Shown here piece by piece: positions 48,660 to 62,486 of a DNA stretch of 64,000 nt. The notes under the pieces were generated by a model. The model saw nothing but the letters and a program-made list of their open reading frames with translations. It was not told the DNA's origin and made no database searches. The stretch is from NCBI GenBank assembly GCA_900316455.1, contig ONCX01000007.1, positions 62,001 through 126,000 of the forward strand, given 5' to 3'. Origin of the DNA: an uncultured Eubacteriales bacterium. Lineage in GTDB: Bacteria; Bacillota; Clostridia; Oscillospirales; Acutalibacteraceae. Position 1 is the first letter of the stretch. Every line of letters starts with the position of its first letter. The position numbers and the translations under genes are program-made.

Positions 48660-51600
48660 TCAGCCGTTGAATTTTTCAGCGTATTCACTGCCGGACTCTG
48701 ATAGCCTCAGATTTCCGTTTTCGTCGGTTGAAAGAAAGCCCTTTGAATCGGCATACTGAACGGCTGCATCGAACGCGGCGTTGACATTCGCGGTGATTCT
48801 GGAAAAATTCATAAGCTTTGCGGATTCCCTCACAAGATCGTCGTGCGACATGCTTATCTGCTCATGAAGTACAAGACAAACGGCGTTGGCTGCCTCCTGC
48901 ACAGGAATTTCCTTTACGTCGCGTTTGTCGTCACCCTCTCCGTTTGCTCGTACAAAAGCGTATTCATCTGGATTCTGGTCTTTTCGCCATATGAATCTGT
49001 CCTCATACTGAATTGTGCTCTGCAATTCAAGAGAATCGACTAATTGCGAGAGACGGTTCTGAACCTTCGGTGTGCTGCGTGTAATGCCGAAGCTCTGGAT
49101 AACTCTGCGGGAAAGTCTCGCTTCGCTTACAGGCGCTTCACTTTCAATAACTGCCTTTATCGCGTCCTTGATTATTTTTTTGCATGACGGCTGCACAAAA
49201 TCCTCTGCTGAAAGAGAGATTGATTTAAGCTCCGCCGCTTTATATGAAATTACATTTGACGGAACAACCGGCTCGGGTTCGTCAGGGATTATTTCTATTT
49301 CATCTTCCGGCGGCAGCTCGGTTTTTTCTTCAGTTGCTTCTTCCGCGTTTTCGGGCGTCTGAACATCAAGCTCTGATTCATCTTCCTCCGCATCTGAATT
49401 CTCCGCCGCAATACGTGAGGCTTCAGCCGCTTTATCAAGAATATCGGTAATACGCGCAAGCTCCTTGCGGCTGTTATCCCACCAGTCCATCGTCCAGACG
49501 CGGGCAATGCTCCAGCCCAGACTGCCAAGAACGCTTATCTGTGCAAGCTCCCTGTCGCGCACTGTCTTGGAATCGCGGTATGTGCTTCCGTCAAGCAGTA
49601 TTCCAAGCAGATAACGGTCGGGATTATTCGGATCAATAACGCCTATATCAATACGGTACTGCGAATGTCCGACGTTGCGCTCGGTTTCATATCCTTTTTC
49701 GGCAAGCGCCGCGCATATCGCTTTGCTTACTCCCTCAGCATCACTTGAATCCGACGAATTATATTCATCGTTAAAACGATCCTTTCCCGCCGCGTATTCG
49801 AGGAATGATTTCAGCGCCGCCACGCCCTCCGCGTGAGTCCTGTTGAGGTCGATCTGTTCAGGTTCAAGAGTGGAGAACACAATCATCTCGCACCTTGCGC
49901 GGGAAACCGCGACATTCAGTCTTCGCCAGCCGCCGTCTCGGTTGAGCGGACCGAAATTCATGGAAACATGACCGTCCTTGTCGGGACCGTAGCCAATTGA
50001 GAAGAGGATAACGTCGCGCTCATCGCCCTGTACGTTTTCAAGATTCTTGATAAAAAGCGGTTCCTTGCCATTATTTACCCAGCTTTCAAGTACGCTGTCT
50101 TCCTTGCAGGCGTCAATCAGCAGGTCGTCTATAAGATTCTGCTGATTGATATTGAATGTGACGACGCCTACGCTCAGCTTGCTGTCCTTTTTGTCATGGC
50201 AGCGGCGTTTTAGCTCTGATATCACAGCCTCGGCTTCGGAACGGTTCTGACGGCTTTTTCCTCTGTCAAAATACCCGTCCGTATGCACAAGTCTTACCTT
50301 CGCCTCGCGGTCGTTTACTGATGGGAAAGTATACAGCTTGTTTTCATAGAAATTGCGGTTGCTGAATGCTATAAGACTTTCGTGACGGCTGCGGTAATGC
50401 CAGAGAAGGTGCGTCTGTGGCATATTCAGGGCAAGGCAGTCGTCGAGAATGCTTTCGAGATCCTCGTCGTCAATATTATCCTCGTCCACCGTGCTTGTGG
50501 CAAAGAATGATGTTGGGGGCATCTGCTTGGGGTCTCCGACAATTACTGCATTCTTTCCCCTTGCAAGAGCGCCTACAGCCTTTGATGTGGTTATCTGGGA
50601 CGCCTCGTCAAATACGACAAGATCAAATGGCTCGCGGTTAGGCGCAAGATACTGCGCCGCCGAAATCGGACTCATAAGCATACACGGGCAAAGTCTCGGC
50701 AGCATGTTTGGTATCTGGTCAAACAGCCTTCGAATGCTCAGACCTCTGCCGCCGCTGCGTATCGCCTTCTGAAGTATGCCAAGCTCGGAGCTTTGCGCCG
50801 CTTCCTTGGCAAAATTAGGAACACGCGACGCAAGTCTGCAGTATATTTCTTTCTTTGTAAGATTGGTAAGCTCGCTGTCCATTTGGCGGAACTGCTCAAT
50901 TTTCTCATTGAACACCGCTCCTGAGAAACGGTTCAGCACAGGCTCAGAATCTATAATCTGCATGGCAAGAGTCTTTGCCATCGCCTTTTTAAATCCGCCC
51001 GCCGCGTCCTCATGCGATATTCCCTGCCTGTATGCCTCTATTACGCATTCCATTCCGCAGTTGATTGCGTCATTAGCTATGGAATTCCATGTGATCCATT
51101 CTTTAAGCTCGTCGAAGTGTTCCGTTACTTTATCACATACATCGATCTGCGTTGAAATCCAGTTTCCGTCAGTATCGGAAGACGTGTCGAGTATTTCACT
51201 CAGCGCGCCCATCGCGGCAAGCGCGGGAGGAATCGCGCTGATAACGCCGTCAATTTCACCGCGTATTTCGCCTCTACCGCAGTATTTTGTGCGGAAATCA
51301 CAGCTTCCAAAGGCTTCGTCAAGCTTTGAAGCGCTTTCCTTCGCTGTGGCGCAGGAAATGCTGACGCTGTTCCAGTCTGTAGCCGCTCCGCAATACATAT
51401 TACCTAAGGATTCGCCGTACTTCGAGAATAAATTAGAGGCAATATTCATTTCGGTGTGGTAATTGAGTAGAGCAACAAGCTGCTGTTCAAGCTGATTCTT
51501 GTTTATCGCTCCGACGGAATATGGTATGAGCTTCTTGCAGAGAGCGTTTATACCTAATTTGCGCGGAATAAGCCACTTTGCCGCGGCTGTGCGGTATTCG

Positions 51601-54600
51601 CCCAAAAGCTGTGTGCCGTCGAGTTCGAGGAATTCCGGTCGCCAGTACTGCGAAAGGTAAGCCGCCTGCTGATTGGCGTTTGAGTAATGCATACTCATTT
51701 CCTGAATCTGGGTGAAGAAAAACGCGGGATTATCCGTCTGTGCCCATGCCTTTGGAAAATCGAGCCAGAGCTTAATTTCACGAGCCGCCGCGTCAAGTGA
51801 AAGTATTTCGGCAAATGTGCCGTATGGAATGTCCACTTGGGAAACGAATTTTTCAACGGCGGTTTTCAGTTCGTTGAGCGCCGATTTATATTCGGAGATG
51901 TTTTCTGGCAGAGTCATGCGAAGCTGCTGAGAATAACTTGCCGTCTTTACAGCGGAAAGCGGATGATCCTTTGGATGGCCCACAGCCCTTGCCGCCGCTG
52001 TAATGCGCTGCAGAAGAATTGCCTGTTCGTCGGCTCTCTCGCGGTCAAGCTCGCCTGTTGAAGCGTAATCCGGCAAGGGAATATCAGGGTAGCTTTTGTT
52101 TGCTTCATATTCGTTTATAAGCTCGTAAAGCGTCTTGCCGCATTTGCGTTCCTTATGGAGTTCTCTGACGTATTCGTTCAGCTCGGCTCTGATTTTGGCT
52201 ATCTGATCCGCTTTGCTTTCGTATGACTGCGCGGTCTGACCTTTGGTAACCTCGGAAGCCTTTCTCAACTGTTCAAGAACCGATTTCTTTTTTGCCTTGT
52301 TGGAATGAAGCTCCAGACAGAAATCTCCTATACCGATTTTATCAAGACGGCGTTCCACAACCTCGAGAGCCGCCATTTTTTCAGCCACAAACAGCACTGA
52401 CTTCCCCTGAGCGAGAGCGTTCGCAATAAGCGCTGTAATTGTCTGGGATTTACCGGTTCCGGGAGGTCCGTGAAGCACGAAGCTCTTGCCCTCGGACGCG
52501 GCTTTGATAGCGAAAAGCTGTGACGCGTCCGCCGACATGGGCAGGAAAACGCCGTTTTCGTCCACCTCATCGCCTATGCTCATTTCCTCGGCTTCCCATT
52601 CAAGCTTGCCTTCCATCAGACTGCTGACAATCTTGTTCTTTGCAAGGTCGTCGTACCTGCTGCGAATATCGTTCCACATGACAAACTGCGAGAATGAGAA
52701 TATTCCGATGTACGCCGATTCGAGAACGTCCCAGTTTTTCTGCTCCATGACAGCCTTACGGACTATGGTGAATACCTTGCGGGTATCTATTCCGTGTTCG
52801 TCCTCCGGCAGTATATTCAGTCCCTTTATCTCGATGTTGAAATCCTGCTTTAGCTTTTCCAGAATGGTAACGTTCATCTGCGGTTCGTCGTCGCGAAGAC
52901 GGACAACATATCCCTGCGCCGCCGATTTACGTACTATCTCCACCGGTACAAGAATTAACGGCGCGTATCTCGGTTTTGTGCTTCTGGGATTTTCGTACCA
53001 GCGAAGCAGTCCTAAAGCCATATAAAGAGTATTTGCGCCGTTTTCTTCGAGTGCGGATTTTGCCGAGCGGTATAGCTCTTTTATCACCTTGGCAAGCTCG
53101 GTATCAGTCAGCGCGGAACGCAGGCGGTGATTCTTGAATTCGGACTGAATGACTGACGCGAATGAGCCAAGCTCGTGCATATTGTCAAAGCTGAATTCCC
53201 CCTGTTCCCAATCCGACGGACGTGGCATTATCTTGAAGTCGTCGCCGTCGGCAAGAGAATCCTCGAGGTCGTCAACAGACGAAGCAAGCAGCGGAATGAG
53301 CGTCTTTGAAAGCCTCAGGTTGATGAGGGAATTCCGCAGTCCGAGGTCAAGAAGCTTGCGTTCCCAGCGTGTCTTTCTGGTAACCGGAGTGTCCTCCTCC
53401 GATTCGTCGATAATTACGGCGCTCCCCTTTTCCTTAGGCGCTGAGGTGAGTTCGTCCTCTGTGAGAAGCGGACGTTCCACCTTCCAGCCGTTTTCTGTCG
53501 GAATTCGCATTGGAATCGGCTTGACTCCGCTGAGTCTTGCGCGGTTCACGTCAATAAAGCATTCTACCGAGCTGAGATCGGCAAGCTGCTTCTCAGCCGC
53601 TTTTTGTGCGTCGTCGAAAGTAACGGTTTCTTCTTTTGCGGCGAACGCTGTACATTCCACGACAGCTATTTCATTTATTCCGTTTGCAAGTCTTTTGGTT
53701 ATGAGCGATACATCGTCCTGAACCGTTTCGGGAAATGACATATCTTCAAGCCATACTCCGGCAAAGATATGCCCTTTCATCAGAACAAGCAGCGGGTGAA
53801 GCCCTATGGCTTCCAGCACGGCAGCGTAGAACAATGTAAGATCCATGCATGTGCCGAGCTTCTGCTCCATTATCGCGTCGCACAGGCGTATGCGCTGTCC
53901 TATTGCCTCAAAGCTGGCGGGAGGCACACAGTATACGATATTCTGTTCCTGCAGCGCTCCGTAAACAGCGGCAGCCTGCTTCAGCACTCTGTTTGTGTCG
54001 TTGCTCTGATACGCGTCAAAGGACGGATCGCCAGTCCACTTGCCGAGAAGCTCCGCTGCGCGTGCGGTTATTTGTGCGATTACAGGGTGATTTGGAGTGA
54101 CGAACGCGCAGAGAAGTTCGGGATATATCGACGTTCCGTGCCACTGGTCAAAGGCGAGAGCCGTAATCTCTGTCCTTTCGCAGCAAAGCTCTTTTTCTCC
54201 CGCCGCAACCGATATTGAAAGGACGCCGTTTATTTTTTCTGTAATTCCCGCAAGATAATTTCCGTCCGGTATTAATCTTAAATTGTTAAGCGTTATAGAC
54301 CTTCCGGCTGGAAGCGTGTCTATATGCTCGGTATACGGCAGACATAAGACTGGTTCAGCCGTTATTGAAAGCGTGGCGTCAGTTATATTTTCGTCCGAAT
54401 CGTTGAATATCGAAAGTGAGCGTATTATTCTAAGTCCGTTATGCAGCAGCGCATAATTTATGACCGGTAAAAGACTGACTTCGATATGTATTTTCGGGAT
54501 TGATTCTCCGGCTGCGGTTTCTGTTTCTTCTGATGATTCTTCTGACTCCAGCTGAACTTCGGCTTCTTCTGACGATTCTTCGGACTCCGGCTGAACTTCT

Positions 54601-55265
54601 GATTCTTCTGATAATTCCTCAGATTCCGGCTGAACTTCGGCTTCTTCTGACGATTCTTCGGACTCCGGCTGAACTTCTGATTCTTCTGATAATTCCTCGG
54701 ATTCTGGCTGAACTTCGGCTTCTTCTGATGATTCCTCTGACTCCGGCTGGATTTCTGCTTCTTCTGATGATTCATCGGATTCCGGCTGGATTTCTGATTC
54801 TTCTGATGATTCATCGGATTCCGGCTGGATTTCTGCTTCTTCTGATAATTCCTCGGACTCCGGCTGAACTTCGGTTTCCATATTGGCATTCTCATTGCCG
54901 TCATTGTAACCGTGTACAAGAACAAACCAGTGGCAAAGCTTATGCGCCATACGCAGACGCTTTTCGGCTTCATCGGGCGTTATTTCCGTTTCGTCGGATA
55001 TGTCGTTTAATAAAATCAGAATATCCTCTATGCTGACAATAATAAGCTGATGTCCTCTCAGGAATTTTATCTTTTCCGACTGACTGGAATCCTCCGGCAG
55101 CGTCAGACCGTTAACGGCAAGAAGCTCGTCAGCAACCCGTTCACCGATTTTTCCAAGCAATACCGCACATTCATAAGGCGACGACTGCCCGCATTCCTCG
55201 GCTTTTGCTCCAAGTCCGGCAATGTCGCTCCATTTAGGAGACATAAAATCAAAATTTGACGCCAT
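48660..55265 (-). CDS. Giant DUF4011/SF1 helicase-nuclease with TGase-like domain
   Basis: 2201 residues, cytoplasmic. Order: DUF4145-like helical domain (about 30-120); nine acidic 13-residue repeats (132-248); beta-sandwich-like region (about 250-380); transglutaminase-like fold with C473 (LGTCMDL) and H499 (KGHIFAGVW); DUF4011 from about 629 (RWERKLLDLGLRNSLINL); SF1 helicase with Walker A GPPGTGKS (933-940), Walker B VVFDEASQ (about 1550), NVQGDERDVI and VAVSRAR (about 1785); Vsr/DUF559-like nuclease (about 1855-1935: RIDIGV, LLDG, WTMDWW); DUF3320-like C-terminus (about 2030-2200). ATG 55265 follows AGGAGGAA. Similar helicase-Vsr proteins are implicated in phage defence; I recall one called Hhe. 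It may also be a chromosomal repair factor. It lies 81 bases behind the sensor kinase gene. Confidence 0.85.
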   Translation of the reverse strand: MASNFDFMSPKWSDIAGLGAKAEECGQSSPYECAVLLGKIGERVADELLAVNGLTLPEDSSQSEKIKFLRGHQLIIVSIEDILILLNDISDETEITPDEAEKRLRMAHKLCHWFVLVHGYNDGNENANMETEVQPESEELSEEAEIQPESDESSEESEIQPESDESSEEAEIQPESEESSEEAEVQPESEELSEESEVQPESEESSEEAEVQPESEELSEESEVQPESEESSEEAEVQLESEESSEETETAAGESIPKIHIEVSLLPVINYALLHNGLRIIRSLSIFNDSDENITDATLSITAEPVLCLPYTEHIDTLPAGRSITLNNLRLIPDGNYLAGITEKINGVLSISVAAGEKELCCERTEITALAFDQWHGTSIYPELLCAFVTPNHPVIAQITARAAELLGKWTGDPSFDAYQSNDTNRVLKQAAAVYGALQEQNIVYCVPPASFEAIGQRIRLCDAIMEQKLGTCMDLTLFYAAVLEAIGLHPLLVLMKGHIFAGVWLEDMSFPETVQDDVSLITKRLANGINEIAVVECTAFAAKEETVTFDDAQKAAEKQLADLSSVECFIDVNRARLSGVKPIPMRIPTENGWKVERPLLTEDELTSAPKEKGSAVIIDESEEDTPVTRKTRWERKLLDLGLRNSLINLRLSKTLIPLLASSVDDLEDSLADGDDFKIMPRPSDWEQGEFSFDNMHELGSFASVIQSEFKNHRLRSALTDTELAKVIKELYRSAKSALEENGANTLYMALGLLRWYENPRSTKPRYAPLILVPVEIVRKSAAQGYVVRLRDDEPQMNVTILEKLKQDFNIEIKGLNILPEDEHGIDTRKVFTIVRKAVMEQKNWDVLESAYIGIFSFSQFVMWNDIRSRYDDLAKNKIVSSLMEGKLEWEAEEMSIGDEVDENGVFLPMSADASQLFAIKAASEGKSFVLHGPPGTGKSQTITALIANALAQGKSVLFVAEKMAALEVVERRLDKIGIGDFCLELHSNKAKKKSVLEQLRKASEVTKGQTAQSYESKADQIAKIRAELNEYVRELHKERKCGKTLYELINEYEANKSYPDIPLPDYASTGELDRERADEQAILLQRITAAARAVGHPKDHPLSAVKTASYSQQLRMTLPENISEYKSALNELKTAVEKFVSQVDIPYGTFAEILSLDAAAREIKLWLDFPKAWAQTDNPAFFFTQIQEMSMHYSNANQQAAYLSQYWRPEFLELDGTQLLGEYRTAAAKWLIPRKLGINALCKKLIPYSVGAINKNQLEQQLVALLNYHTEMNIASNLFSKYGESLGNMYCGAATDWNSVSISCATAKESASKLDEAFGSCDFRTKYCGRGEIRGEIDGVISAIPPALAAMGALSEILDTSSDTDGNWISTQIDVCDKVTEHFDELKEWITWNSIANDAINCGMECVIEAYRQGISHEDAAGGFKKAMAKTLAMQIIDSEPVLNRFSGAVFNEKIEQFRQMDSELTNLTKKEIYCRLASRVPNFAKEAAQSSELGILQKAIRSGGRGLSIRRLFDQIPNMLPRLCPCMLMSPISAAQYLAPNREPFDLVVFDEASQITTSKAVGALARGKNAVIVGDPKQMPPTSFFATSTVDEDNIDDEDLESILDDCLALNMPQTHLLWHYRSRHESLIAFSNRNFYENKLYTFPSVNDREAKVRLVHTDGYFDRGKSRQNRSEAEAVISELKRRCHDKKDSKLSVGVVTFNINQQNLIDDLLIDACKEDSVLESWVNNGKEPLFIKNLENVQGDERDVILFSIGYGPDKDGHVSMNFGPLNRDGGWRRLNVAVSRARCEMIVFSTLEPEQIDLNRTHAEGVAALKSFLEYAAGKDRFNDEYNSSDSSDAEGVSKAICAALAEKGYETERNVGHSQYRIDIGVIDPNNPDRYLLGILLDGSTYRDSKTVRDRELAQISVLGSLGWSIARVWTMDWWDNSRKELARITDILDKAAEASRIAAENSDAEEDESELDVQTPENAEEATEEKTELPPEDEIEIIPDEPEPVVPSNVISYKAAELKSISLSAEDFVQPSCKKIIKDAIKAVIESEAPVSEARLSRRVIQSFGITRSTPKVQNRLSQLVDSLELQSTIQYEDRFIWRKDQNPDEYAFVRANGEGDDKRDVKEIPVQEAANAVCLVLHEQISMSHDDLVRESAKLMNFSRITANVNAAFDAAVQYADSKGFLSTDENGNLRLSESGSEYAEKFNG
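54522..54872 (-). repeat. Nine tandem 39-bp units coding acidic repeats
   Basis: In-frame tandem repeat of 13-residue units of the form E[VI]QPES[ED]E[LS]SEE[AST]. Nine units fill residues 132-248 of the helicase. Alternating L and S at position 9 suggests duplication of pairs. Strongly acidic, likely extended; such arrays vary in copy number between strains. Confidence 0.9.
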
Positions 55266-55346
55266 AATATTCCTCCTGTTTAGTTATTTATATTTATTCT
55301 GTTTTTTCGCAATTTATAATATATGTAGCAAAATACGCGATAAAAA

Positions 55347-56438
55347 TTATTCTGAAAGCGGCAGAATTACAGAAAAGCATGTGCCTTCGCCCTGATGACT
55401 AATTACTGAGATTTCAGCGTTAGCAAGCTCGGCTATTCTCTTGACAATCGCAAGCCCCAGTCCGTTGCCCTCTGATTTGTGAGATGTATCGCACTGATAG
55501 AATTTGTCGAATATTTTGCGAAGCGTTTCTTCATTCATTCCGTCGCCGCTGTCTGAAATATCCACGCATATATTATTCTGATTTTTTCTGCACCTGACCA
55601 GAACCGTATCGGCTCTGTGGGAAAACTTAATAGCGTTTCCAATCAGATTAAGCCACATCTGCGCGAGCATTTCCTCATTAAAATTATATTTTACCTCGTC
55701 AAGCTCAAGCTCGATATTCACTTCACGGGCTGTCCATTCCTTTTCGAGCAGCAGCACAGTCCTCCTGATCTGTTCATCAAGGTAGAATTCCGTCTTGTCG
55801 GTTACTATCTGCTGATTTTCAAATTTTGTAAGCATAAGAATATTCGACGAAAGCCTTGCAAGGCGGTCTGACTCGTAGGCTATAATATCTGTGTATTCCC
55901 TGCGCTGTTCGTCTGTCAGCGAATGAAGAACATTGTCCCTTTGAAGCTGACGCGCAAAACCGCGTATAGATACAATAGGAGTTTTAAATTCATGGGAAAA
56001 GCTGTTGATAAAATCGTTGCGGAAAAGCTCGGTTGATTCCAGCTCGTCCGCCATGCTGTTGAAGCTGTGCATGAGGTTATTAAGCTCGCCGATGACGGTC
56101 TGCTCCGACAAACGCACCTTGAAATTTCCCTGACCGATTTCTTCATTTGCGGATATCAGACGCCTTAGCGGATTTATAAAAAGCTTTCCGACAAAAACAG
56201 CCATTATTGTTCCTATGATCATGCACGAAATAATAACTATTACGGGAAGAATAAGCGGAGTCAACGCGGCTGACGGAATAAAACCAAGCATATAGAGTAC
56301 GATATAAATGCCCGCGGTTATCAGACCGGCGGACACAAGTATAAGCAATACAAGCAGCGTATAAGCGGTTCGCAACGATCTCAGAGAGTGAAACTGCTTC
56401 TTCGTTTCCCTTGCCCTTTCTTTAATCTTTCCGCTCAT
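55347..56438 (-). CDS. Sensor histidine kinase
   Basis: 363 residues. Two membrane helices (about 24-46 and 58-82) with hardly any external loop between them, HAMP linker, HisKA with FSHEFKTPIVSIRG, HATPase with N-box NLIGNAIKFSH, G1 DSGDGM, F-box IFDKFYQCD and G2 GNGLGLAIV. The near-absence of an extracellular sensor suggests intramembrane sensing, as in cell-envelope stress kinases. ATG overlaps the response regulator stop (ATGA). Confidence 0.93.
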   Translation of the reverse strand: MSGKIKERARETKKQFHSLRSLRTAYTLLVLLILVSAGLITAGIYIVLYMLGFIPSAALTPLILPVIVIISCMIIGTIMAVFVGKLFINPLRRLISANEEIGQGNFKVRLSEQTVIGELNNLMHSFNSMADELESTELFRNDFINSFSHEFKTPIVSIRGFARQLQRDNVLHSLTDEQRREYTDIIAYESDRLARLSSNILMLTKFENQQIVTDKTEFYLDEQIRRTVLLLEKEWTAREVNIELELDEVKYNFNEEMLAQMWLNLIGNAIKFSHRADTVLVRCRKNQNNICVDISDSGDGMNEETLRKIFDKFYQCDTSHKSEGNGLGLAIVKRIAELANAEISVISHQGEGTCFSVILPLSE

Positions 56439-57109
56439 TGGCGAGCCACCGCCTTATATCCAAGTCCGCGCACTGTGATTATCTCAAAATCATCGTTATT
56501 CCTGAATCTTTCTCTCAGACGGTTTATATGCACGTCAACAGTCCTTTCGTCAGTATCGCTGTCCATATCCCACAGCTCGTCCATGAGCTGACGGCGTGTG
56601 AACACTTTGTTTTGATAAGACAGAAGCTTGAAAATCAGCAGGAATTCCTTTTGCGGCAGCTCAAACGATACTCCGTTGTGTTCGACGGTCATGGCATCAT
56701 AGCTCAGTTTTGTGTTTCCTACCACAATACAGCGTTCGCTGGCTATCTTTGCACGCCGGAGAAGAGCGTTTATTCTGAGCAGCATTTCCTCTTCATCGAC
56801 AGGCTTCACCATATAATCGTCCGTTCCCGCCAAAAATCCCTCACGCTTGTCGGCGTGAGTTTCACGGGCTGTCACCATCAATATCGGAGTATCACAGCCG
56901 CCGTCACGAAGCAGTCTTGTAAACTGAAATCCGTCCATTCCGGGCATCATTACGTCAAGAACAATCAGGTCAACCTGCTTTTTATCCATAAGTGAAAGTG
57001 CTTCCTCGCTGTCACAGGCAGGAATTGCTTTGTAACCGTTCTGAATGAGAACCGTTTCCATCAGACGTCTTGTATTTTTATCGTCCTCTACGACCATAAT
57101 ATTGAACAT
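56435..57109 (-). CDS. OmpR-family response regulator
   Basis: 224 residues. Receiver domain with acidic pair VVEDDKN, phosphoacceptor D52 (LIVLDVMMPG) and MVKPVDEEEM; C-terminal winged helix (RTVDVHINRLRERF, VRGLGYKAV). ATG 57109 follows GAGGTAATTG. Partner of the overlapping histidine kinase. Targets unknown; possible regulation of the helicase gene just downstream is an inference. Confidence 0.93.
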   Translation of the reverse strand: MFNIMVVEDDKNTRRLMETVLIQNGYKAIPACDSEEALSLMDKKQVDLIVLDVMMPGMDGFQFTRLLRDGGCDTPILMVTARETHADKREGFLAGTDDYMVKPVDEEEMLLRINALLRRAKIASERCIVVGNTKLSYDAMTVEHNGVSFELPQKEFLLIFKLLSYQNKVFTRRQLMDELWDMDSDTDERTVDVHINRLRERFRNNDDFEIITVRGLGYKAVARQ

Positions 57110-57119
57110 TTCAATTACC

Positions 57120-57539
57120 TCATTGCAATAATGCCGCGTCGTCCTTGCAGTATTCAAAAAGCTCCCTTATCCGGTTAATGCTTCCGCTAAGATAAAGATA
57201 TCCGAAAAGCGCTTCAAGTCCTGTGGCTGTATGGTATGCCGCGGAGGACTTTCTTGGTGAATGAGACGTATGGTAATTTCTTCCTCTGCGGAAGACTCCC
57301 TCTTCTTCATCGGTAAGATGAGGCAGTATGCGCTTCATATATTCCGCCTGAGCCTCGCATCTTACCATTGAAACCGCACGGCTGTGCTGCTCTGACGCAT
57401 GCGCGTTGCTCTGTGACGCGAGATATTCCCTTACCAGCAGACCGAACACACCGTCGCCGACAAATGCCAAAACGTCGCTGCCGCAACGCTTCGGATCGCA
57501 TTCTATCCCAAGCAGATTATGCGAGTTACTGTTTTCCAT
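57120..57539 (-). CDS. mrnC: Mini-ribonuclease 3
   Basis: 139 residues, an RNase III catalytic domain without dsRNA-binding domain: VLAFVGDGVFGLLVREYL, GRNYHTSHSPRKSSAAYHTA and GLEALFGYLYLSG. It matures 23S rRNA in Firmicutes. ATG 57539 shares one base with the upstream stop (TGATG); a GTG three bases earlier is an alternative. Confidence 0.93.
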   Translation of the reverse strand: MENSNSHNLLGIECDPKRCGSDVLAFVGDGVFGLLVREYLASQSNAHASEQHSRAVSMVRCEAQAEYMKRILPHLTDEEEGVFRRGRNYHTSHSPRKSSAAYHTATGLEALFGYLYLSGSINRIRELFEYCKDDAALLQ

Positions 57540-58953: not shown

Positions 58954-58990
58954 AAATTGTTGTATATTATTTTTGGGAGAGAATGCAAAA

Positions 58991-60121
58991 ATGACAACAT
59001 TTAATATTGTACATACATCTGACCTGCACTTAGGCAATCTCTATTCATCGACGCCTGAGGTTTCGGAACAGATGAAACAGGAACAGACGGATATCCTTAA
59101 ACAGATACTCGATCTATGCACGGCTAACAAAGCCGACGCGTTGTTGATAGCTGGAGACATGTTTGACAGCATGAGAGTTGAAAGCGCTTTTTTAGAGAAA
59201 GTAAAGCGTCTTATAAGTCACTACAACCTGAGAATATTCATTACTCCAGGTCTGCATGATCCCGCAACTCCGGATTCATGCTACAATACCGAGTGGCCGC
59301 AGAACGTTCACATTTTCCGCGGCGGCATGGAAAAGGTCGAAATTCCGGAGAAAAATACGTGCGTGTGGGGCGCGGGATTTACACGTACAAGGTGCGAGGA
59401 ATCTCTGCTTAAAAATTTCAGACCCGTAAACAGCAGAATCAATATTCTCATGCTTTACGGAGAGCTTTTTGACGGAGTAAGCACCGACAGCATATGCAAT
59501 CCTATAGATATCAATGAAATCAACTCCTGCGGAGCGGATTATGTGGCTCTCGGTTCATCTCATAAATATGAGCATTATGAAAACAACGAGCTGATATACT
59601 GTTATTCAGGTATGCCAGCCGCCTGCGGCTTTGACGAATTAGGTGAAAAGGGCGTACTGTGCGGTTACGCCGCCAAGGGATTCGCACGTATGACATTCAC
59701 TCCGCTCGACGGAAGAATTTACTGCAAGGAGAAAATCGACGTAAGCGGCTGTGCAGAATCCGAACAATTCGCGGACAGGATTATTTCTGTTTTGAGGGAC
59801 AGGTACGGCGAGAAGTTTTCATACAATCTTTACGATATCAGTCTTATCGGTACGCCTTTCGAGGGAGTAATCCCATCTATACCCGAAATAAGGCAGCTGC
59901 TTTCTGAATCTTCCATATTCTATGCCAGACTTACCGATATGACCTCCCCCACCGTGGACTTCGAGCTTCTGATGAACGACGGCTCACTTAAAGGGGCGTT
60001 TGTCAGAAAGGTGTTTGAAAAGATGCAGTCAGACAGCCGCGGAGGAGAGAAATACATGCGCGCGCTGCTCTACGGACTGAACGCGTTTGAAGGGAATGTG
60101 AACATAGATGAAAATTATTGA
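58991..60121 (+). CDS. Metallophosphoesterase, SbcD/YhaO-like nuclease
   Basis: 376 residues. Calcineurin-type motifs TSDLHLGN, AGDMFDS, TPGLHDP (His in the GNHD position) and LYGELFDG; the C-terminal 120 residues resemble a capping domain. Predicted Mn-dependent DNA end-processing subunit, partner of the ATPase encoded with a 14-base overlap. Start ATG 58991 (MTTFNIVHTSDLH) after GGGAGAGAA; TTG 58973 lies in the ribosome site. Confidence 0.88.
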   Translation: MTTFNIVHTSDLHLGNLYSSTPEVSEQMKQEQTDILKQILDLCTANKADALLIAGDMFDSMRVESAFLEKVKRLISHYNLRIFITPGLHDPATPDSCYNTEWPQNVHIFRGGMEKVEIPEKNTCVWGAGFTRTRCEESLLKNFRPVNSRINILMLYGELFDGVSTDSICNPIDINEINSCGADYVALGSSHKYEHYENNELIYCYSGMPAACGFDELGEKGVLCGYAAKGFARMTFTPLDGRIYCKEKIDVSGCAESEQFADRIISVLRDRYGEKFSYNLYDISLIGTPFEGVIPSIPEIRQLLSESSIFYARLTDMTSPTVDFELLMNDGSLKGAFVRKVFEKMQSDSRGGEKYMRALLYGLNAFEGNVNIDENY

Positions 60122-62486
60122 GATAAACATAAGATATTTCGGAAAGCTCAGAGATTTTGTAATTAAACCTGGCGACGGCGTTAATATTATTTACGGAAAG
60201 AACGAATCGGGAAAATCCACCGTCATGGCATTTATCAAGGCTATGTTTTACGGACTTGATTCCGGAGAAAAACGCAATCAGTACGAACCATGGGGCGGCG
60301 GACAGCCTGCCGGCTCTATTGAATTTGAACATAACGGGATTACATATTTTCTCAACCGAACCTTCGGCGAGACAAAGGGATATGACAAAATTTCTCTGTT
60401 TGATAAGACCAACGGTGAATCTGTGCCGCTTTCACCGGGACAGGAGCCTGGAGTATTGATATTCGGAATTAATATCAAGACCTTTGTCAGCTCGGTTTTC
60501 ATTGGGCAGTCAGGCGTTGCCGTGGAGGGTGAAAACCATGAAATAATCGAACGTCTGGTAAATCTCACCTCAGCCGGAGACGAGCATGTTTCAAAGCGCG
60601 AGATTGACAAGCGTCTGAAAAATGCCGTGGCAAGGCTTGATTCAAAGAAATCCGACGCCATTCTTCCAGAGCTTCGCAAGCAGAAACGCGAGCTTACCGA
60701 TTCGCGTGCCGAAATGATGAAGGTACTCGCCGAATCGGACGATCTGAGAGACAGGATTGCCGTTGATATGCGCGAGAAGAAGACGCTCGGCGAGGAAAAA
60801 GCTTTTTTGGAGGAAATGTACGACAGGCTTGAGAAAAAAGAAGAGCTTGCCGAAATTGACGCTATAATTCGCAAGCGCGACGAGGTCAGCGAGCTTGAGG
60901 AAAAGTTCAACCGGCTGGATAAGCTGTTCAGCGGAGAGCTTGCGGACGGCATGAGCGAATTTATGTCTGATTCCGCAAGACTGCTCGACGAAGAAAAAAT
61001 GAGAGAAGCCGCTCTTCAGGAAAAGGTCGATGAGCTGGAGGATCTCAGGCGGCAGTCGGTTTCTATAGACCGTCCTAAGCTCAATATGACTAAGATTGTA
61101 AAAAAATACGCAAAGGAAATTGAGATAGCCTTTGATCAGTACGATTCCATTGTCAGGGACAGAAAGGAACTGGAGCTTGCCATCGAGGAAAAAGAGGAAC
61201 CTGAACCGGAACCTGACGATATGCGAATGGTCGGAGGCATTTGTGCGGCGGTAATGATTGCCGCGCTGCTGCTCGGGGCATTTGTTCACTGGATATTCTA
61301 TCTTATGGGAATTCTTGCCGTTGTCAGCATTGCCGTTTATATTTTCATATATAAAAAAGGCGTTGACGAAGAGGATAAATTCAGCGAAGAGGAACTTGCG
61401 CTTTCCGGAATAAACGAGCAAATGAACGCTTTGAACGAGGAAAACAGGTATATACTGGACGAATTCGGCGTCAGGACTATGGACGATTTTGACAGGCTTT
61501 ATAAGGCTATAGAGCAGAATCAGAAAAAGTATATCGAAAGCAGAGAAAAGAAAATGAAGATAGAGTCGCAGATTTCCGAGCTGAAAGGAGAGCTTGAAGA
61601 CGTCCGCCAAAGGCTGCAGGATAATCTCGCCACATATCACGAAACAGAATCAAGCGAGGAAGCTTCCGATATTATCAACAAACTAAGCAGCATGAAGCGC
61701 GAACATGAAAAGCTTTCAATGAAGCTCGATTCCGCAAGGGAAACCTATAAATTCATGCTTAGGGGACGCAGTATAGACAGCCTGGTACTTTACAGCGAAC
61801 AGATCCGCAGCAGCGTTGAGCTTGAGGTTCCCGACAGCTTCACCAAGGAAAATGTCAAAAGCAAGCTGTCAGCTGTAAACGCAAAATCCGAAGAGATAAG
61901 CGCACAGATAGCCCGTGAGGAAACAGAGCTGCAACTCAAGCCGTACAATACACAGAGCGTTCAGCTGGTTTCTGACGAAATAAAAGCCCTTAACAGACGA
62001 ATCGAACATTATGAATTTGAACTCAGCGCCATTGAGGAAGCTCAGAAAACGCTTGACGAAGCGTTCCATGAGATGAAAATTGATTTTGGTCCGATGATAA
62101 ACTACCGTGCTTCAAGAGTTCTTAGCGGTATGACAGGAAACAAGTCCAATACGGTTCTTGTTTCGGATAAGCTCATTCCAGCATTTGCGGAGCAGGGAGA
62201 CAGCCAGCCAAGAAGCAGCGAAATCATGGGCGCGGGTACATATAATCAGATATATCTCGCCCTGAGAATAGCTCTTTGCGGTGTTGTAACCGATGAAATA
62301 CTGCCCGTGATGCTTGACGATTCATTTGTACAGTTCGATGACGAACGTATGACCGACGCTCTTAAATTCATCAAAGATGATAACGCTCTCGGTGAAATAG
62401 GACAGGTAATTATCTTCACATGTCACAAGCGCATGATAAGCGCCGCCAAAAAGATCGAAATGACAGATAACGTTTTCAGCATGTAG
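60108..62486 (+). CDS. SbcC/YhaN-like SMC-type ATPase with membrane hairpin
   Basis: 792 residues. N-terminal Walker A GKNESGKSTV, long coiled coils (about 190-360 and 430-640), a pair of membrane helices in the middle (about 381-425, GGICAAVMIAALLLGAFVHW and FYLMGILAVVSIAVYIFIY), and C-terminal signature/Walker B (MGAGTYNQIYLALRIAL, LPVMLDDSFVQFD). This is the YhaN arrangement of Bacillus, membrane-tethered unlike SbcC. Works with the nuclease upstream, probably in DNA end repair. A terminator follows at 62513. Confidence 0.9.
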   Translation: MKIIEINIRYFGKLRDFVIKPGDGVNIIYGKNESGKSTVMAFIKAMFYGLDSGEKRNQYEPWGGGQPAGSIEFEHNGITYFLNRTFGETKGYDKISLFDKTNGESVPLSPGQEPGVLIFGINIKTFVSSVFIGQSGVAVEGENHEIIERLVNLTSAGDEHVSKREIDKRLKNAVARLDSKKSDAILPELRKQKRELTDSRAEMMKVLAESDDLRDRIAVDMREKKTLGEEKAFLEEMYDRLEKKEELAEIDAIIRKRDEVSELEEKFNRLDKLFSGELADGMSEFMSDSARLLDEEKMREAALQEKVDELEDLRRQSVSIDRPKLNMTKIVKKYAKEIEIAFDQYDSIVRDRKELELAIEEKEEPEPEPDDMRMVGGICAAVMIAALLLGAFVHWIFYLMGILAVVSIAVYIFIYKKGVDEEDKFSEEELALSGINEQMNALNEENRYILDEFGVRTMDDFDRLYKAIEQNQKKYIESREKKMKIESQISELKGELEDVRQRLQDNLATYHETESSEEASDIINKLSSMKREHEKLSMKLDSARETYKFMLRGRSIDSLVLYSEQIRSSVELEVPDSFTKENVKSKLSAVNAKSEEISAQIAREETELQLKPYNTQSVQLVSDEIKALNRRIEHYEFELSAIEEAQKTLDEAFHEMKIDFGPMINYRASRVLSGMTGNKSNTVLVSDKLIPAFAEQGDSQPRSSEIMGAGTYNQIYLALRIALCGVVTDEILPVMLDDSFVQFDDERMTDALKFIKDDNALGEIGQVIIFTCHKRMISAAKKIEMTDNVFSM

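What the first reader, a model, noticed from the sequence alone, without database searches (positions are those of the whole stretch)
48660..55265. 2201-residue helicase-nuclease with seven stacked domains
Seen: DUF4145-like domain, acidic repeats, transglutaminase-like fold, DUF4011, intact SF1 helicase motifs, Vsr/DUF559-like nuclease and DUF3320-like end in one frame. Known: DUF4011-helicase-Vsr proteins have been linked to phage defence, and DUF4145 occurs in restriction enzymes. Inference: a single-protein defence or DNA quality-control machine in which the N-terminal modules sense or regulate. It is larger than a plain helicase-Vsr protein and sits among housekeeping genes rather than in a defence island.
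Basis: partly seen in the sequence, partly recalled or inferred. Interest (0 to 1): 0.8.

Follow-up and report, generated by a model that had tools for sequence, protein, structure and literature searches.

The report
Giant ProA defence helicase, eroded nucleases
This is a very large single-gene protein of a bacterial anti-virus family already catalogued by NCBI; its motor and a protease-like part look intact, while its two nucleic-acid-cutting parts have lost residues that related enzymes keep.

Summary
Window 48660-55265 (-) is one intact 2201-aa frame: HsdR/DUF4145-like HEPN fold, acidic repeat linker, beta domain, transglutaminase-like domain, DUF4011, SF1 helicase, MTES_1575 (Vsr-type) REase, DUF3320 end. 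It is a known kind: NCBIfam NF058533 "anti-phage protein ProA" scores 2110 bits (cut-off 1500), and the architecture was described in 2013 (PMC3710099).

What this study adds is the state of the active sites. Of 13 proteins above the ProA cut-off that I read, 13 keep the transglutaminase-like Cys/His/Asp residues and the Walker lysine, but 1 keeps the full D-ExD-H signature of the REase, against 24 of 28 PF18741 domains read in the phylum. The HEPN motif RNxAVH, kept in four relatives, is missing from the window and all 11 genus members read; a different R-x6-H lies further along in 10 of these 12.

In the genus the gene is near-core (15 of 17 genomes), usually beside the same CAP gene (12 of 15). 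Elsewhere it is sporadic, on plasmids or near restriction genes. Best reading: a vertically kept ProA-type defence protein, helicase-driven, possibly with the transglutaminase-like peptidase rather than the REase as effector. Anti-phage activity of this protein is untested.

The parts
48660..55265 (-). proA-type gene, 2201 aa, intact frame
   Evidence: NF058533 2110 bits over residues 269-2155
54900..55265 (-). residues 1-122: HsdR/DUF4145-like HEPN fold without the RNxAVH motif
   Evidence: motif absent in the window and 11 of 11 genus members read, present in L078, L080, L081, L103; an R105-x6-H112 lies further along
54492..54899 (-). residues 123-258: acidic linker, 42% D+E, with the 39-bp x 9.1 tandem repeat at 54519-54872
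   Evidence: place and charge kept in genus members, repeat unit different or no clear repeat
54150..54482 (-). residues 262-372: beta-sandwich domain
   Evidence: model, matches
53466..54149 (-). residues 373-600: transglutaminase-like domain with Cys473, His499, Asp518, Asp572
52854..53360 (-). residues 636-804: DUF4011
51834..52532 (-). residues 912-1144: SF1 helicase first part (AAA_11), Walker A GPPGTGKS 933-940
50946..52085 (-). residues 1061-1440: faster-evolving insert between the helicase halves
49866..50945 (-). residues 1441-1800: SF1 helicase second part (DE 1553-1554, GDPKQ 1577-1581, QGDER 1746-1750, SRAR 1788-1791)
49446..49727 (-). residues 1847-1940: MTES_1575 REase domain; D1873 and D1892 kept, E position is L1890, H position is R1897
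48663..49250 (-). residues 2006-2201: DUF3320 / winged-helix end
   Evidence: DUF3320 said to overlap a wHTH domain in PMC3710099

Best explanation
The gene encodes a ProA-family anti-phage protein of the giant HEPN-transglutaminase-SF1 helicase-Vsr-winged helix type, kept by vertical descent in this genus of Clostridia (relatives are mostly rumen and gut metagenome bins). Shown: the family, the domain order, the intact helicase motifs, the conserved Cys/His/Asp residues of the transglutaminase-like domain, the erosion of the REase signature in most ProA proteins read, and the loss of the RNxAVH HEPN motif in this genus while that domain stays under purifying selection. Inferred: the winged helices and helicase engage foreign or aberrant DNA; ATP-driven movement changes the state of the protein; the HEPN-fold domain and acidic linker act as sensor or regulator; and the effector step is more likely the transglutaminase-like cysteine peptidase, or blockage of DNA by the helicase, than DNA cutting by the altered REase domain.
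For: NF058533 above cut-off over its full length; PADLOC PDC-S37 1248 bits. Walker A lysine in 53 of 53 relatives' rows, DE in 51 of 51. Cys473 and His499 in 49 of 50 rows, Asp518 and Asp572 in 50 of 50. REase E position is L, M or V in 51 of 51 rows and the H position never H. Among 13 proteins scored above the ProA cut-off the Cys/His/Asp/Asp set is complete in 13, the REase DEDH in 1 (Raoultella), E kept in 2, H kept in 2. Of 28 PF18741 domains readable among the 30 best-scoring loci of a capped list, 24 have DEDH; three of the other four pass the ProA cut-off and the fourth is 99% identical to one of them. HEPN motif missing in the window and 11 of 11 genus members read, present in four relatives, at least 3 changes on the tree. 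HEPN-fold domain dN/dS 0.10 in the least saturated pair (G002-G017). Outside the genus: NF058533 above cut-off in 7 of 200 family genomes, three of these in the genus; restriction enzymes close by at 4 of 25 chosen loci and weaker defence-model hits at 3 more.
Against: No phage assay for this protein; nine full-text searches found no paper behind the name ProA. In this genus the gene is near-core, beside housekeeping genes, and its identity tracks that of a neighbour gene (Spearman 0.94 over 12 genomes), which also fits a DNA-maintenance role. PD-(D/E)XK sites can shift, and D1873, D1892 and the DR of RDRE remain, so the REase may still cut. A new R-x6-H (R105-H112) in 10 of 12 genus members read, and an R103-x4-H108 in 8 of 12, could stand in for the lost HEPN motif. 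The transglutaminase fold match is weak in quality, and one row (L087) has lost its Cys and His.
Confidence: 0.6

Rival explanations
1. A classical helicase-nuclease: the helicase moves on phage DNA and the REase domain cuts it with the remaining acidic residues; the HEPN and transglutaminase parts are regulatory.
For: REase recognised with 83.9 bits; D1873 in 50 of 51 and D1892 in 51 of 51 rows; domain under purifying selection (dN/dS 0.03-0.15 where computable); Hhe and the Raoultella ProA keep the full signature.
Against: E missing in 51 of 51 and H in 51 of 51 relatives' rows; full signature in 1 of 13 ProA proteins read against 24 of 28 PF18741 domains read.
Confidence: 0.25
2. A housekeeping DNA-maintenance protein of this genus, no longer chiefly a defence system.
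For: 15 of 17 same-genus genomes carry it; same CAP gene downstream in 12 of 15; identity tracks the RelA/SpoT-like neighbour; neighbours are RadA-like, HAD, RelA/SpoT, CAP, a two-component pair, RNase III-like, DUF815, metallophosphatase and AAA ATPase (the name RadA is recalled).
Against: No match in G005, 98% complete; 7 of 200 in the family; relatives on plasmids (most are Hhe-type, Klebsiella 239 of 429 records); restriction genes near relatives. A DUF4011 gene is in every P. aeruginosa isolate searched while flanking a defence hotspot (PMC10250203, passages), so core status does not exclude defence.
Confidence: 0.2
3. Suicidal HEPN RNase defence as proposed in 2013: the N-terminal HEPN domain cleaves RNA if DNA cutting fails.
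For: Proposed for this architecture in PMC3710099; L078, L080, L081 and L103 keep RNxAVH; R105-x6-H112 in 10 of 12 genus members read might replace it.
Against: RNxAVH itself is absent in the window and all 11 genus members read; the other R-x6-H sits inside the last helix (residues 97-122 of the model), where the motif-bearing relatives have no H, and is missing in G002 and G017.
Confidence: 0.08

Closest known systems
NCBIfam NF058533 'anti-phage protein ProA'
   Same: Full-length match, 2110 bits against 1500; beta domain, transglutaminase-like, DUF4011, SF1 helicase, REase and DUF3320 in the same order
   Different: The window protein adds about 260 residues in front (HEPN-fold domain plus acidic repeat). 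REase signature eroded, as in 12 of 13 ProA proteins read; the Raoultella ProA keeps it
Giant HEPN-transglutaminase-SF1 helicase-Vsr-wHTH proteins (MTES_1575, Brachybacterium; PMC3710099)
   Same: Same order of domain classes (passages)
   Different: There the HEPN is of the SWT1/Abi2 family and listed as active; here it is HsdR/DUF4145-like without RNxAVH
Hhe (NF042953)
   Same: DUF4011, SF1 helicase and MTES_1575 REase; 39.5% identity over the second helicase part and REase
   Different: Below the Hhe cut-off (812.7 against 2000 bits); the Hhe protein read has no transglutaminase-like part and keeps D-ExD-H
Type I restriction enzyme HsdR N-terminus (PRK11448, DUF4145)
   Same: Residues 2-229 match with 48.1 bits
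   Different: The rest of the window protein is SF1/REase, not HsdR; far below the PRK11448 cut-off of 729

Membership tests
ProA (NF058533) | Whole-protein score above the curated cut-off | tested here: met
   2110 against 1500 bits, profile 1-1903 of 1903
ProA (NF058533) | Beta domain, transglutaminase-like, DUF4011, SF1 helicase, REase, DUF3320 in this order | tested here: met
   the transglutaminase-like part rests on a fold match and conserved residues, not on a Pfam hit above cut-off
ProA (NF058533) | Protects cells from phage | not testable with these tools
   No assay; the name is NCBI's
MTES_1575 REase (PF18741) | Profile score above cut-off | tested here: met
   83.9 against 38.2 bits
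MTES_1575 REase (PF18741) | D...ExD...H signature, as in 24 of 28 domains read | tested here: not met
   Window reads D-L-D-R
HEPN RNase (DUF4145 type) | HEPN helical fold | tested here: met
   Model pLDDT 89.1; best PDB matches are HEPN with prob up to 1.00, though best E is 0.073; relatives pass DUF4145
HEPN RNase (DUF4145 type) | R-x4-6-H motif in the RNxAVH place | tested here: not met
   other R-x4-6-H strings (R103, R105) lie further along
Hhe (NF042953) | Whole-protein score above the curated cut-off | tested here: not met
   812.7 against 2000 bits
Transglutaminase-like peptidases | Conserved Cys, His and Asp | tested here: met
   49 of 50, 49 of 50 and 50 of 50 rows; 13 of 13 ProA above cut-off; which Asp completes the triad is not settled
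Transglutaminase-like peptidases | Transglutaminase fold | tested here: inconclusive
   Top match TG2, E 9.8e-5, but rmsd 22 and many beta-sandwich-only hits
SF1 helicases | Walker A, DE, GDxxQ, QGDER and SRAR motifs | tested here: met
   near-invariant; motif names recalled

The most novel reading that the evidence does not exclude
ProA, at least in this branch, is not a nuclease system. The helicase motor and a transglutaminase-like cysteine site stay intact across phyla while the REase signature is eroded in most members and the HEPN motif is lost repeatedly, so sensing of DNA by the helicase would switch on a protein-cleaving or cross-linking effector.
Probability: 0.3. Interest if true: 0.8.

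Novelty: new variant of a known kind. Interest (0 to 1): 0.45.

Why it matters
DUF4011-helicase-Vsr proteins are read as helicase-nucleases. If ProA keeps its motor and a peptidase-like site but has mostly dropped the nuclease signature, the effector of this defence family may act on proteins, which single-site mutants can test directly. The series HEPN motif intact, motif lost, domain lost, or SWIM instead gives a natural experiment on what the N-terminal module does.

Tried and rejected
Paper behind the name ProA: nine full-text searches in the held library found none (listings only). DUF4011 occurs in 3 held papers. Hhe membership: rejected on score. Chance or artefact: rejected, since 14 of 15 carriers in the genus match at 65-84% identity and G009 at 44%. 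Horizontal arrival at this site within the genus: not favoured, because identity tracks a neighbour gene.

Dropped or corrected rows. PF18741 reading: only the 30 best-scoring loci were given, from 56 of 199 genomes with a match; L158 is the window, L157 is interrupted by a stop and left out, L135 was first read in a wrong place and re-read (DEDH), so 24 of 28. Only two of the 24 DEDH proteins were scored against ProA, both below cut-off. L166 was not scored but is 99% identical to L163. Tree: 53 rows, chosen as at least 1150 aa from 52 of the 59 loci, plus five genome-search loci and the window; L084 was mislabelled 'none' and corrected (14 changes instead of 15); quick method, 14 of 50 inner branches open. 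The 51 REase rows come from a search with window peptides, so they lean to near relatives; they include one Synergistota and one Bacteroidota row. In one search a name clash made my script use a gapped copy of P0001, so the ends of the relatives' stretches in alignment A3 are slightly off; the window row is right. Spearman left out G012 and G014 (0.91, n = 10); with them 0.94, n = 12; G003, G015 and G016 are out because only a distant paralogue of the neighbour was found; the identities were typed in.

Defence-neighbour tally: 25 non-genus loci chosen by me of 59, three genes each side, 130-1500 aa. 117 neighbours hit 159 PADLOC models at 1e-20, 48 other window proteins hit 4; the tool counts models, many of them redundant, not proteins, so this is only a rough contrast. 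Of 20 large neighbours looked at one by one (three beyond the three-gene limit), restriction enzymes occur at L093, L101, L103 and L106; L080, L097 and L117 have weaker or generic hits. dS is above 1 or not computable in most pairs.

The REase erosion was tested on ProA proteins above cut-off, which strengthens the novel case; the two changes pull apart and its probability stays 0.3. Interest went from 0.42 to 0.45.
Full report
Observation. The frame at 48660-55265 (-) is real, intact and 2201 aa long. Pfam finds DUF4011, AAA_11, AAA_12, MTES_1575 and DUF3320 in that order. Pfam does not see the N-terminal module in the window protein, but residues 2-229 match the HsdR-type model PRK11448 with 48.1 bits, relatives L080 and L081 pass the DUF4145 cut-off, and the model of residues 1-128 (pLDDT 89.1) has HEPN structures as best matches (2hsb, TM 0.70, prob 1.00; best E only 0.073). 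The acidic stretch is a 39-bp, 9-copy tandem repeat. The region after it is modelled as a beta domain and a transglutaminase-like domain; the best PDB match is transglutaminase 2 (E 9.8e-5, rmsd 22 over 434 columns), and many other hits match the beta-sandwich alone.

Identity. NCBIfam NF058533, 'anti-phage protein ProA', covers residues 269-2155 with 2110 bits against a cut-off of 1500; PADLOC has PDC-S37 at 1248 bits. Hhe, the DUF4011-helicase-Vsr protein, is a relative but fails its cut-off (812.7 of 2000). The class HEPN plus transglutaminase-like peptidase plus SF1 helicase plus Vsr REase plus winged helices was described in 2013, with defence, RNase suicide and a possible protein-cleaving step proposed (PMC3710099, passages read). 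So this is a member of a known kind.

N-terminal module. Among relatives (59 loci) the part in front of the beta domain varies: HsdR/DUF4145-like, SWIM zinc finger (PF04434 above cut-off in the two sent to Pfam, L096 and L101; pattern match in 7 rows), or none; at least 14 changes of type on a 53-row tree, 14 of whose 50 inner branches are open. Four relatives (L078, L080, L081, L103) have the HEPN motif RNxAVH. The window, the 11 other genus members read, G038 (L016) and L112 do not. L016 groups with the motif-bearing L081 (SH-aLRT 100), so the motif was probably lost more than once; the fewest changes are 3. Against a dead RNase: 10 of the 12 genus proteins have an R-x6-H (R105-H112 in the window) and 8 of 12 an R103-x4-H108 inside the last helix. 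The domain is still conserved (dN/dS 0.10 between G002 and G017, the least saturated pair). The acidic linker keeps place and charge (31-55% D+E in 8 genus proteins), with a different repeat unit, or no clear repeat, in each.

Active sites. Helicase motifs are near-invariant: Walker A lysine 53 of 53, DE 51 of 51, R1789 51 of 51. Cys473 and His499 are present in 49 of 50 rows, the exception being L087; Asp518 and Asp572 are both invariant, and which one completes a triad is not settled. The REase differs. Hhe and a Raoultella ProA have D...ExD...H, and so do 24 of 28 PF18741 domains readable among the 30 best-scoring loci from 199 genomes of the phylum. In the relatives aligned here the E is L, M or V in 51 of 51 rows and the H is never there. 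The four exceptions among the 28 are L146, L147, L159 and L160; whole proteins of three (L163, L164, L165) pass the ProA cut-off, and the fourth (L166) is 99% identical to L163. The two DEDH proteins that I scored do not pass it. Taken together, 13 proteins scored above the ProA cut-off (seven, three, three; three of them from the window's genus) keep Cys/His/Asp/Asp in 13 of 13 and the helicase lysine in 13 of 13, but the full REase signature in 1 of 13; two keep the E and two keep the H. That these residues are catalytic in PD-(D/E)XK enzymes is recalled knowledge, not tested here.

Context. In the genus 15 of 17 other genomes carry the gene; the two without are G001 (79% complete) and G005 (98%). 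The same CAP gene lies directly downstream in 12 of the 15, and the RelA/SpoT-like gene follows in 8 of the 9 of these whose contig goes on (G015 is the exception). G007 and G009 carry diverged copies at other places without the HEPN-fold domain; G016 could not be judged. ProA identity tracks RelA-like identity (Spearman 0.94, n = 12). In the window the two-component pair lies upstream of the gene, while in several relatives it lies beyond RelA, so the block has been turned round. Outside the genus the family is sporadic: 7 of 200 genomes of the family above cut-off, three of them in the genus. Relatives occur in Pyramidobacter (L086) and in Bacteroidota (L117, L127), the helicase-REase part has relatives in 429 plasmid records, many of them Hhe, and in one 11-kb phage-labelled record. 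Near 25 chosen non-genus loci restriction enzymes occur at four, weaker defence-model hits at three more; the model-count contrast (159 for 117 neighbours, 4 for 48 window proteins) points the same way but counts redundant models.

Mechanism. The most economical reading is a defence protein whose motor and winged helices recognise foreign or aberrant DNA. Since the REase signature is eroded in this branch and in most ProA proteins read, cutting by that domain is not the safe assumption. The conserved Cys/His site makes the transglutaminase-like domain the best remaining candidate effector; this step is inference (about 0.3). Core status in the genus does not exclude defence: a DUF4011 gene was found in every P. 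aeruginosa isolate searched while flanking a defence hotspot (PMC10250203, passages read).

Verdict. Observation confirmed; interpretation partly supported; new variant of a known kind. The interest lies in eroded nuclease signatures beside an intact motor and peptidase-like site.

Noticed in passing
window 55265-57157: The gene lies 81 bp behind a same-strand response regulator-histidine kinase pair and lacks the upstream element (about TATTGAA...ACGTGATATGAT, or close variants) found before proA in G013, G006, G004, G008 and G003; the block is turned round here, so expression control may have changed.
   Followed up: partly
L014 / L052 (G002 and G017): dS between the two proA genes falls from about 0.9 in the N-terminal part to about 0.1 in the C-terminal part, which suggests recombination.
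   Followed up: no
L080:8001-15089: A relative with the HEPN motif whose frame runs about 220 residues beyond the end of the match to the window protein.
   Followed up: no
L110:8001-16822: The match runs some 2.8 kb beyond the end of the 2149-aa frame, as if a second related piece lies downstream.
   Followed up: no
L053 / L084 (G012): The frame breaks at the acidic repeat, separating the HEPN-fold part from the rest; assembly error or real is not known.
   Followed up: no
MT836269.1 6168-7676: An 11.4-kb record labelled Bacteriophage sp. encodes a 58% identical helicase-REase part.
   Followed up: no
window 58973-62486: A metallophosphatase and AAA ATPase gene pair (SbcD/SbcC-like or YhaO/YhaN-like by recall) lies beyond the two-component pair, the RNase III-like gene and the DUF815 gene.
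   Followed up: no
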